Shown one piece after another: positions 10,242 to 13,506 of a stretch of 58,353 nucleotides of DNA; within the stretch, counting starts at the first letter, position 1, and each line of letters begins with the position of its first letter. Source of the stretch: an uncultured bacterium (GTDB lineage Bacteria; Patescibacteriota; Gracilibacteria; Absconditabacterales; Absconditicoccaceae); NCBI GenBank assembly GCA_946611795.1, contig CAMOEC010000055.1, positions 1 through 58,353 of the forward strand, read 5' to 3'. The position numbers were made by a program, and so were the translations under genes. The notes under the pieces were generated by a model. The model was not told the DNA's origin, ran no database searches, and saw nothing but the letters and a program-made list of their open reading frames with translations.

Positions 10242-11000
10242 ATGAAGAAATTAAAAAAAGATATAATCAGACCAAATCTTTATGATTATTTAAAAGTCAT
10301 TGCACTTTTGGTAATGCTCCTTGATCATTTATGATACTACGTTTTTCCTGAATATGTTTTTTTAAGAGTTATCTGAAGAATTGCATTTCCTATCTTTTTG
10401 TTTTTGGTATGATTTTCTTGATCATATTCCTGGAGACGAGATATTCCAATCATAGGATTATTACTTTGGGGAGGTTCATATTATATTTATAATCAATATT
10501 GATTTTGATCTCCAGGCGCTAACATTCTCATATGAATAACTATTTCTAGATTTTTCTTAAACATTATCGACAAAAAAAATTATTATCGAATCCTTATTTT
10601 TTCATTTCTCTTTGTTATAATCCATCCTATTCTTTATAAATATGTTGATTATTGATCTCTATCTTTCTTTTTTGTTCTTCGATGACGAATTGCAAAAAAT
10701 CATAGTAAATACTTTTTCTTTTGAATTTTTCCTTTAATTTTATGTATCATAAATAATATTAACGTCTTCGACTTCTGATTCAAACACTGAGACTATAAAT
10801 ATTTTTATATTATACTTATTATTTATTTTATTTTTTATTGTTTTGCGTTTTCTCTTTCTAAAGAAAATCTTAATTTTCAAACATGAAAAAAATGGCGAGA
10901 TAATTTAATTCTCTGATTTTCAAAACATAGTTTAGCTTTTTACCGAATTCATATCGTAATACTTTATTTTATTGGACTACATAGATTTTGATTTCTTTAA
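10242..11000 (+). CDS. TraX-like / acyltransferase-type membrane protein
   Basis: MKKLKKDIIRPNLYDYLKVIALLVMLLDHLGYYVFPEYVFLRVIGRIAFPIFLFLVGFSG..., resembling TraX-family N-termini; multi-TM. Confidence 0.65.
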
Positions 11001-11560
11001 AAAGAATCAAATACTTGAGATAATGATGTCGATTCAATAATTGGATCTTCTTTTAATAATTCTTCAATTGGTATATTTTTTGTTTCATTACTTATTTCCT
11101 TTTGCTCTTCTACTTTTTTTTCTACTTTTTCTTCTACTGTATAAATAGGAGCCTCTTGAAAAACATTTTCTTTGAGATATTGACTTTGACGTCTCTCTTC
11201 GTCAATAACATCTTGTAATGTATTTTTTTCTGTTTGGTTTTTATCTTCAAGATTTGTCTTGTCTATTTGTTGTTTTAAATCATTTGGTTTGTCTACTATT
11301 CTTTCATTTACATCATATTCTCCATCTTTTAATAAAGCTTGTTCGTAATCATAATCAACTTGTTTCAGAATCCAAAATTTAGGATCAGTTGACAAATATT
11401 TTGTCAAAATAATATCCCATGCAACAGTAATATTTCTTTTTCATCTTATCAATTCATTAATTTCACTTGTCTTTTTCCCTATTTTTACAGAAAAATCCTT
11501 CTGAGTATATCAGCTTTCTTTCAAATATTCTGCTAATAACATTCAAGGATGCTGTAACAT
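10997..11560 (-). CDS. HigA-like XRE antitoxin domain with long charged C-terminal extension
   Basis: MLQHPGMLLAEYLKESGYTQKDFSVKIGKKTSEINELIRGKRNITVAWDIILTKYLSTDPKFWILKQVDYDYEQ...; HigA/VapI signature (HPG..L.EYL, FWL.LQ.DYD), then about 95 aa Glu/Lys-rich tail. Confidence 0.82.
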
Positions 11561-11579
11561 AATATTTATACAACATGAA

Positions 11580-11811
11580 ATTAAAAAATTCACTAATTCA
11601 TAGAATCGTAGAATTTTTATATTCTAAAAATTCACTGTTTCATAGAATCAGTTAATATTATAAACCTTTTTATTTTTTTTGCAAAAAAATTCACAAATTC
11701 ATAGAAATAGTGAATTTCAATACACAGAAAAATATATTACAAATTCACAAATTCATAGAAACAGTGAATTTATTATTTTTTTAAAAAAATTCACTTAAAT
11801 AGTGAATTTTT
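11580..11811. repeat. Array of about 5 imperfect palindromic repeats, consensus near AAATTCACAAATTCATAGAAACAGTGAATTT
   Basis: Copies near 11587 (attcactaattcatagaatcgtagaattt), 11629 (attcactgtttcatagaatcagtt), 11688 (attcacaaattcatagaaatagtgaattt), 11743 (attcacaaattcatagaaacagtgaattt), 11789 (attcacttaaatagtgaattt). Confidence 0.8.
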
Positions 11812-12456
11812 TTAAACTGTTAAACCTATACTGTATAATTGAAGATCTCATTTTTTCTTATCCTTCTTCTTTCAATATATTTCATCTCATACGATAGGAT
11901 ATCATATCGAAGAAAGATGGCTTCTTATTTGATGACGAATTCATTTCTGAATATTTATTATGAGTGTGGTAGTTTGTTCAGCATCGTTATACAAACTCTC
12001 CAGAATTTTTGTTTTAACACGGTGTAACCTATTGTCTATTTTTCTTCAATCTGTATTTGGTAAAACAACAACCATACGATCTTTTGAAAATTTATGATGT
12101 GCAATAGGGTAGTCTATAATATTTCAATTTTCCCTTATTCGATATCTTATATCTCAATAAACTTCTGCTATATAGTATTTATTTACTTTTCACTGTTTCT
12201 GTAACTCCTTATATTCCTTTTTTACCTCCTTATTCTTTGCAAAATAGAGGAGTCCTTTTGTTGGGGTATCTAATCTATTCAACAATCAATATTCATCTTC
12301 AGCACCAAATTCATTCAATAAAGACTGTATTACTTTATGATCTTTTTCTTCAAAAATATATTCTAGAAAAGATTTTTCTTTTCAAAAAGTTGTTGGAATT
12401 CAAGCCGGCTTCCAAATATAGAAACACCAATTATCTTCGTACCATACAAATTTCAT
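11812..12456 (-). CDS. RluA-family rRNA/tRNA pseudouridine synthase
   Basis: MKFVWYEDNWCFYIWKPAGIPTTFGKEK...EYGLLNRLDTPTKGLLYFAKN...KYYIAEVYGDI...GIRHQIRSHLSSIGYPIVGDEIYG. Confidence 0.88.
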
Positions 12457-12514
12457 CAACCCTTTATAATATAAACTGTCTCTTTTTATATAATTTCTAA
12501 TTTTAAAAACAAGA

Positions 12515-12540
12515 AAAAAAAGCCCGAAATCGGGCTTTTA
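12515..12540 (-). terminator. Rho-independent terminator downstream of secF
   Basis: AAAAGCCCGatttCGGGCTTTTTTTT on the minus strand. Confidence 0.8.
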
Positions 12541-12558
12541 TATTATTTATTATTCATC

Positions 12559-13506
12559 TTATTTAATTTTCTTATCTGTAAGTCTTAATAAGATATATGC
12601 TGTTGGTATAGCTACAAATAAACTACTCAAGAATGAAGCTATTACTCAAACTCATACTGTAAATGCAAATCTTTGAACAACTCAAGTTCCGAAAATAAAC
12701 ATTGAACATAATACTAACATTGTTGATAGAGATGTTCCAATAGATCTTCTAAATGTTTGCCAAATACTATCTTCTAATACATCTTTATATGAAAATTCTT
12801 TTTTAGAATGCTTCATTATATTCTCTCTTGCTCTATCGAATATAATAATAACATCATTAATTCCATATCCTATAATAGTAAGTATTGCAATAATAAACAC
12901 TGTATCTATTTGAATTGTTGAATCTAATCACATCCATAGTCAGTAAGCTCCAGCAGGAAGACTTATACTCAATATTGATGATAATAATACAACTGCTGCT
13001 AATACACTTGGTGCTATGTATTTTCTAATTGTTCAGAATGAGAAAATCATATATATCATCATAGCAATCAATCAAAAGATTAATGCCTTTACAGCTGTAC
13101 TACGCATATAATCTCAAACACTTGGTCAAATAACAGCCTGTGAAACAATATCATCTGCTGATGTTATTACTCCGTTTTCAATTAAATATGAAGGTACAGC
13201 TAATGATAGTTCATTAACTTTTTCATCAGAATCAAGACTTCAGTTAATCTTTAATTTTACTGTCTCTTCTTCTTGATCAACATTTACTTGTAACTTTGGA
13301 AAATTCTTTTCCTGAAGTGCTGTTACAAGATTGTTTTCAAAATTATCATCCTTTATCTCTCCATTAAATTCAATACTAACTCCTCCTGTAAACTCTTCAG
13401 AGAATTCTGCATTGAAGAAGAATAAAATCCATGATGCAATAGCTACTGTAACCGCAATACATAGCCAAAGATACCCATTTTTTACAATACCGAAATACTT
13501 TTTCAT
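12559..13506 (-). CDS. secF: Protein translocase subunit SecF
   Basis: MKKYFGIVKNGYLWLCIAVTVAIASWILFFFNAEFSEEFTGGVSIEF...TIIGYGINDVIIIFDRARENI...SIWQTFRRSIGTSLSTMLVL. Confidence 0.92.

What the first reader, a model, noticed from the sequence alone, without database searches (positions are those of the whole stretch)
11580..11811. Array of palindromic repeats immediately upstream of the HigA-like gene
The 250-bp intergenic region upstream of the HigA-like start holds about five imperfect repeats, ATTCAC(A/T)AATTCATAGAA(A)nAGTGAAT, each with inverted-repeat ends (ATTCAC...GTGAAT). The layout suggests a multi-operator autoregulatory region; the array is unusually dense for a single XRE regulator. 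A small mobile palindromic repeat is an alternative.
Basis: partly seen in the sequence, partly recalled or inferred. Interest (0 to 1): 0.6.

Follow-up and report, generated by a model that had tools for sequence, protein, structure and literature searches.

The report
Operator array of toxin-free HigA-like regulator
A row of five matching DNA landing sites sits just in front of a gene for a HigA-type DNA-binding protein, and a comparable row precedes that gene in all 26 SR1 (Absconditabacteria) genomes where this stretch could be read, so it is very probably the switch by which the protein controls its own gene, with no recognisable partner toxin.

Summary
The array is real: four 25-bp sites (TTCAC-nnn-TTC-nnn-GAA-nnn-GTGAA) and one 17-bp site (TTCAC-N7-GTGAA) between rluA and a HigA-family HTH gene, in a TGA=Gly SR1/Absconditabacteria genome. 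The 25-bp motif occurs nowhere else in the 1.31-Mb draft genome, so it is not a dispersed repeat. All 26 orthologues with readable upstream DNA have such an array (2-8 sites); ten weaker HigA paralogue loci have none. Arm spacing is almost only N7 (66) or N15 (45), against 0.35-0.38 in shuffles; N15 equals two N7 units offset by 8 bp. This matches the published two-dimer operators of GraA (TTAAC-N7-GTTAA) and P. aeruginosa HigA. Variable symmetric positions inside the sites do not covary, which argues against RNA hairpins. Sites bracket a promoter-like TTGCAA-N16-TATAAT. Best reading: a cooperative autorepression array of a toxin-free HigA-family regulator. No HigB- or RelE/ParE-type toxin family was found in the genome. 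All 27 orthologues end in [VI]FxxF; in several species murG follows directly. Binding and repression are inferred, not shown. Known operator type, new dense and toxin-less setting.

The parts
11589..11613 (.). Operator 1, 25-bp double site, degenerate right arm (TTCACTAATTCATAGAATCGTAGAA); in the predicted 5' leader of the regulator gene
11631..11655 (.). Operator 2, 25-bp double site (TTCACTGTTTCATAGAATCAGTTAA); one base from the predicted -10 box and covering the expected transcription start
11690..11714 (.). Operator 3, 25-bp double site, both outer arms perfect; 5 bp from the predicted -35 box
11744..11768 (.). Operator 4, 25-bp double site, both outer arms perfect; upstream of the promoter
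11790..11806 (.). Operator 5, single 17-bp unit TTCAC-N7-GTGAA; inside a perfect 16-nt-arm inverted repeat (11780-11816) just after the rluA stop, so it could also serve as an A/T-rich terminator of rluA
   Evidence: the double role is inference
11657..11684 (-). Predicted promoter of the regulator gene: -35 TTGCAA (11684-11679), 16-bp spacer, -10 TATAAT (11662-11657), flanked on both sides by operators; similar placement in several relatives
   Evidence: consensus match only; the number of such matches in the region is not above chance
10997..11560 (-). HigA-family regulator, 187 aa (TGA=Gly): HTH domain about residues 1-78, low-confidence tail, C-terminal tip VFDSF
11812..12456 (-). Upstream neighbour, RluA-type pseudouridine synthase; a neighbour only, not part of the system

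Best explanation
The array is a set of operators through which the HigA-like protein regulates its own promoter, most likely by cooperative repression. The unit site is a 17-bp palindrome, TTCAC-N7-GTGAA, for one HigA-type dimer. The 25-bp sites are two such units overlapped with an 8-bp offset, so that two dimers would sit on different faces of the DNA, as seen for GraA and P. aeruginosa HigA. Operators bracket and abut the promoter, so rising protein would exclude RNA polymerase and hold the protein level in a narrow range; several sites would make the response steep. The protein appears to act without a HigB toxin. Its tail, ending in [VI]FxxF, is probably where another factor (protease, chaperone or partner) acts on it. 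Where murG lies 9-21 bp downstream, murG would fall under the same control. Shown here: array, uniqueness, conservation, spacing, promoter placement, protein family, absence of known HigB/RelE-type toxin families. Inferred: binding, sign of regulation, cooperativity, tail function, murG control.
For: Genome-wide uniqueness. Same array type upstream of 26 of 26 orthologues with readable upstream DNA, none at 10 paralogue HigA loci. Family genomes without the orthologue have no 25-mer site. Spacing histogram with peaks at N7 (66) and N15 (45), shuffle means 0.35 and 0.38, maximum 3. Inner TTC/GAA conserved although sites were chosen by outer arms only. The array stays with this gene while neighbours change (rluA or others upstream; traX, murG or ksgA downstream). 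Promoter-like hexamers bracketed by sites in several genera. HigA family by TIGR02607 above cut-off and by fold. Published GraA operator AAATTAACGAATAACGTTAAGCATTCAGCTCAT contains TTAAC-N7-GTTAA and binds two dimers at opposite sides (PMC6393540); P. aeruginosa HigA likewise (PMC6987408); M. tuberculosis HigA2 site ATATCAC-N6-GTGATAT (PMC11205783).
Against: No binding or expression data. Some sites in relatives lie 200-380 bp upstream of the start codon, farther than simple promoter occlusion needs. Promoter-like matches in this A/T-rich stretch are not above chance in number. One relative has a second cluster of sites away from the gene (L086) and another has single units downstream of it (L020), so targets may not be limited to the own promoter everywhere. 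In GraA the distal half-sites are nearly non-specific, whereas here the outer arms are the best conserved part, so the division of labour within the site must differ.
Confidence: 0.85

Rival explanations
1. A dispersed palindromic element (REP- or MITE-like) that happened to multiply here.
For: Palindromic copies in a row in an intergenic region.
Against: No copy elsewhere in the 1.31-Mb genome with up to 3 mismatches; the array tracks one orthologous gene across genera and the sequences between the sites are not conserved as a mobile unit would be.
Confidence: 0.02
2. RNA-level element: the palindromes act as hairpins in the leader (attenuator, terminator or processing sites).
For: Each copy can pair with itself; the fifth copy sits after the rluA stop in a perfect inverted repeat with 16-nt arms.
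Against: Variable symmetric positions inside the sites do not covary in 61 distinct 25-mers or 38 distinct 17-mers; only the base pair just outside the 25-mer does. N7 and N15 spacings are explained by overlapping dimer sites, not by one hairpin. No Rfam match in the array. Three of the five sites lie upstream of the predicted promoter.
Confidence: 0.04
3. The sites are bound by a different regulator and the HigA-like gene is only its target.
For: There is no direct binding evidence for the encoded protein.
Against: The array is adjacent to this gene at all readable orthologue loci and is not found in family genomes that lack the gene; spacing and TCAC half-sites fit the HigA family.
Confidence: 0.06
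4. The operators belong to a complete but unrecognised toxin-antitoxin pair whose toxin is encoded elsewhere or is of an unknown family.
For: The protein is in the HigA antitoxin family, and such antitoxins usually repress their own operon.
Against: No HigB-like, ParE, RelE or HigB_toxin Pfam match in the genome; no small gene is kept beside the regulator across 25 loci. The genome is about 90% complete, so this is not excluded.
Confidence: 0.1

Closest known systems
GraA antitoxin and graTA operator, Pseudomonas putida (PMC6393540)
   Same: HigA fold; 17-bp TTAAC-N7-GTTAA geometry; two dimers on one operator; autorepression
   Different: One operator and a GraT toxin; offset between the two dimer sites 7 bp (read from the printed sequence) rather than 8; distal half-sites nearly non-specific. 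Here 2-8 sites, no recognisable toxin, strong outer arms
HigA (PA4674), Pseudomonas aeruginosa higBA (PMC6987408)
   Same: Central palindrome plus two distal half-sites bound by two cooperative dimers on opposite sides
   Different: Half-site TTAAC rather than TTCAC; one operator region in higBA; toxin present
HigA2 (Rv2021c), Mycobacterium tuberculosis (PMC11205783)
   Same: TCAC half-site in the palindrome ATATCAC-N6-GTGATAT; acts as a regulator
   Different: N6 rather than N7; binds inside higB2 and at further sites in the genome, not in a dense array before its own gene

Membership tests
HigA family (TIGR02607 / HTH_3) | Match above curated cut-off | tested here: met
   TIGR02607 50.6 bits against cut-off 47.7; HTH_3 28.4 against 23
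HigA family (TIGR02607 / HTH_3) | HigA fold | tested here: met
   AlphaFold2 block pLDDT 89-98 over residues 1-80; the best PDB matches are HigA/GraA-type antidote proteins
HigBA type II toxin-antitoxin module | Adjacent HigB-type toxin gene | tested here: not met
   Neighbours are rluA and a convergent traX; no small neighbour gene is kept across loci
HigBA type II toxin-antitoxin module | HigB/RelE-type toxin anywhere in the genome | tested here: not met
   PF05015, PF05016, PF06296, PF09907: no match; genome about 90% complete
HigA/GraA-type two-dimer operator | Palindrome with N7 between half-sites and a second, overlapping dimer site | tested here: met
   N7 and N15 peaks, 8-bp offset; GraA has N7 with a 7-bp offset, read from the published sequence
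HigA/GraA-type two-dimer operator | Cooperative binding by two dimers in vitro | not testable with these tools
   Needs purified protein and DNA
Dispersed palindromic repeat (REP/MITE) | Many copies across the genome | tested here: not met
   Only the four long copies of this array

The most novel reading that the evidence does not exclude
A toxin-free HigA-family regulator that has become a homeostatic sensor in Absconditabacteria: a self-limiting circuit with a dense two-dimer operator array, whose [VI]FxxF tail tip receives a signal (regulated proteolysis or a partner protein), and which in part of the group sets cell-wall synthesis through murG.
Probability: 0.2. Interest if true: 0.65.

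Novelty: new variant of a known kind. Interest (0 to 1): 0.45.

Why it matters
My literature searches (open-access library only) turned up no account of such a regulator in SR1 bacteria. The locus gives a concrete, testable circuit with a defined binding site, and shows a HigA antitoxin-type protein kept across genera together with its operators but without a recognisable toxin, which bears on how antitoxins become ordinary regulators.

Tried and rejected
Mobile repeat: rejected by genome-wide search. RNA hairpin: no covariation inside the sites and no Rfam match in the array (the weak sub-threshold hits lie at the GC hairpin near 12505-12600). Toxin partner: four toxin families absent. Wider regulon: a 25-mer search of 36 genomes found no other place in the own genome; in the family the one site off the regulator locus is in L086, and one in G038, outside the family, looks like chance. 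A first search of genome contigs with the single protein found nothing; with the alignment it gave 16 loci, 15 of them relevant. The second structure model, of a short orthologue, did not settle the tail tip: it forms the low-confidence end of a helix.

Full report
Setting. The window is contig C55 of a 1.31-Mb draft genome, about 90% complete. Reading TGA as glycine (table 25) gives long open frames throughout, and named relatives are SR1/Absconditabacteria, including Candidate division SR1 bacterium RAAC1_SR1_1, CP006913.1. On the minus strand the order is an rluA-type pseudouridine synthase (12456-11812), the array, then a 187-aa HigA-like gene (11560-10997); a TraX-like gene converges from the other side.

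Observation. The array holds four 25-bp sites and one 17-bp site at the coordinates listed under parts. The arms ATTCAC...GTGAAT occur three times in the window against 0.18 expected. With up to three mismatches the 25-bp motif is found nowhere else in the genome, and the reversed-pattern control gives 0. The 17-bp unit with up to one mismatch is hardly commoner than its control (37 against 33), so no wider set of sites is visible in this genome.

Comparative test. Orthologues were found in 27 species of one family, spanning eight genera: 25, clearly separated in score from other HigA proteins (at least 128 against at most 90 bits), and two more (G243, G244) through their sites. One (G018) lies at a contig edge without upstream sequence. 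The other 26 all have sites upstream; counted with at most one arm mismatch there are 2 to 8 per locus in the 25 loci. Ten loci of weaker HigA paralogues have no N7 or N15 site. Over the 28 loci the spacing between TTCAC and GTGAA is N7 in 66 cases and N15 in 45, all from the 18 orthologues; other spacings up to N22 give 0-2 each, and small numbers at N25, N28 and N29 (4-7) probably come from neighbouring sites. Shuffles give means of 0.35 and 0.38 and at most 3. Sites were selected by outer arms alone, yet the inner TTC and GAA of the 25-mers are strongly conserved. A 25-mer is thus two 17-mers offset by 8 bp, with weaker inner half-sites in this genome (TTCAT/TAGAA) and near perfect ones elsewhere (for example TTCACACATTCAGTGAATTAGTGAA in L018). 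In 36 genomes searched for the 25-mer, the family genomes without the orthologue had none.

DNA or RNA. If the palindromes worked as hairpins, variable symmetric positions should covary. They do not in 61 distinct 25-mers and 38 distinct 17-mers; the only excess is the pair just outside the 25-mers, which may be a one-base extension of the operator or shared ancestry. Nothing in the array matches Rfam.

Protein. The regulator passes the HigA antitoxin model TIGR02607; the closest solved structures by sequence and fold are HigA and GraA proteins, several of them bound to operator DNA. The HTH domain is predicted with high confidence and the tail mostly with low confidence. All 27 orthologues end in [VI]FxxF although total length varies from 102 to 283 residues; the paralogues do not. 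What the tip does is unknown; a degradation or docking signal is my inference.

Geometry against published operators. The wild-type GraA operator printed in PMC6393540 contains TTAAC-N7-GTTAA, the same spacing as here, and is bound by two dimers at opposite sides. P. aeruginosa HigA does the same on a central palindrome with two distal half-sites (PMC6987408). Reading N7 from the printed sequence, and an offset of 7 bp there against 8 here, is mine. M. tuberculosis HigA2 uses a TCAC half-site with N6 (PMC11205783).

Promoter and neighbours. A promoter-like TTGCAA-N16-TATAAT lies between operators 3 and 2, with operator 2 one base from the -10 box. In several other genera a similar pair of hexamers lies between sites, and in L016, L020 and L031 a site starts at or right after the -10 box. 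By number alone such matches are expected in this A/T-rich stretch, so the support comes from their placement across genomes. The upstream neighbour is often rluA; the downstream neighbour is traX, ksgA, murG or another gene depending on lineage. In several loci a murG gene follows in the same direction after 9-21 bp, which suggests shared transcription there but not in this genome.

Toxin. No HigB-like, ParE, RelE or HigB_toxin Pfam family is found in the genome, and no small gene is kept beside the regulator. About a tenth of the genome may be missing and unknown toxin families cannot be excluded.

Judgement. The kind of operator is known; the dense array, the absence of a recognisable toxin, the conserved tail tip and the link to murG in part of the group are the new aspects. 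Binding, sign of regulation and signal remain to be tested.

Noticed in passing
window:11000-11014 (C-terminal tip of the regulator) and its orthologues: All 27 regulators of this group end in [VI]FxxF after a tail of very different length; paralogues do not.
   Followed up: partly
L047, L053, L054, L056, L057 downstream of the regulator: A murG-type gene follows the regulator in the same direction after 9-21 bp; in L016 it is convergent.
   Followed up: partly
L086:2505-2653 (G004 contig 26): A second group of sites, TACACTGTTTCACTGAAACAGTGAA and TTCACTATTTGAGTGAA, near a contig end without an obvious gene; a possible second target.
   Followed up: partly
L020:2101-2288: Two single 17-bp units lie in the intergenic region downstream of the regulator.
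   Followed up: no
   Followed up: partly
window:12520-12545: GC-rich hairpin aagcccgaaatcgggctttt between secF and rluA, a likely intrinsic terminator.
   Followed up: no
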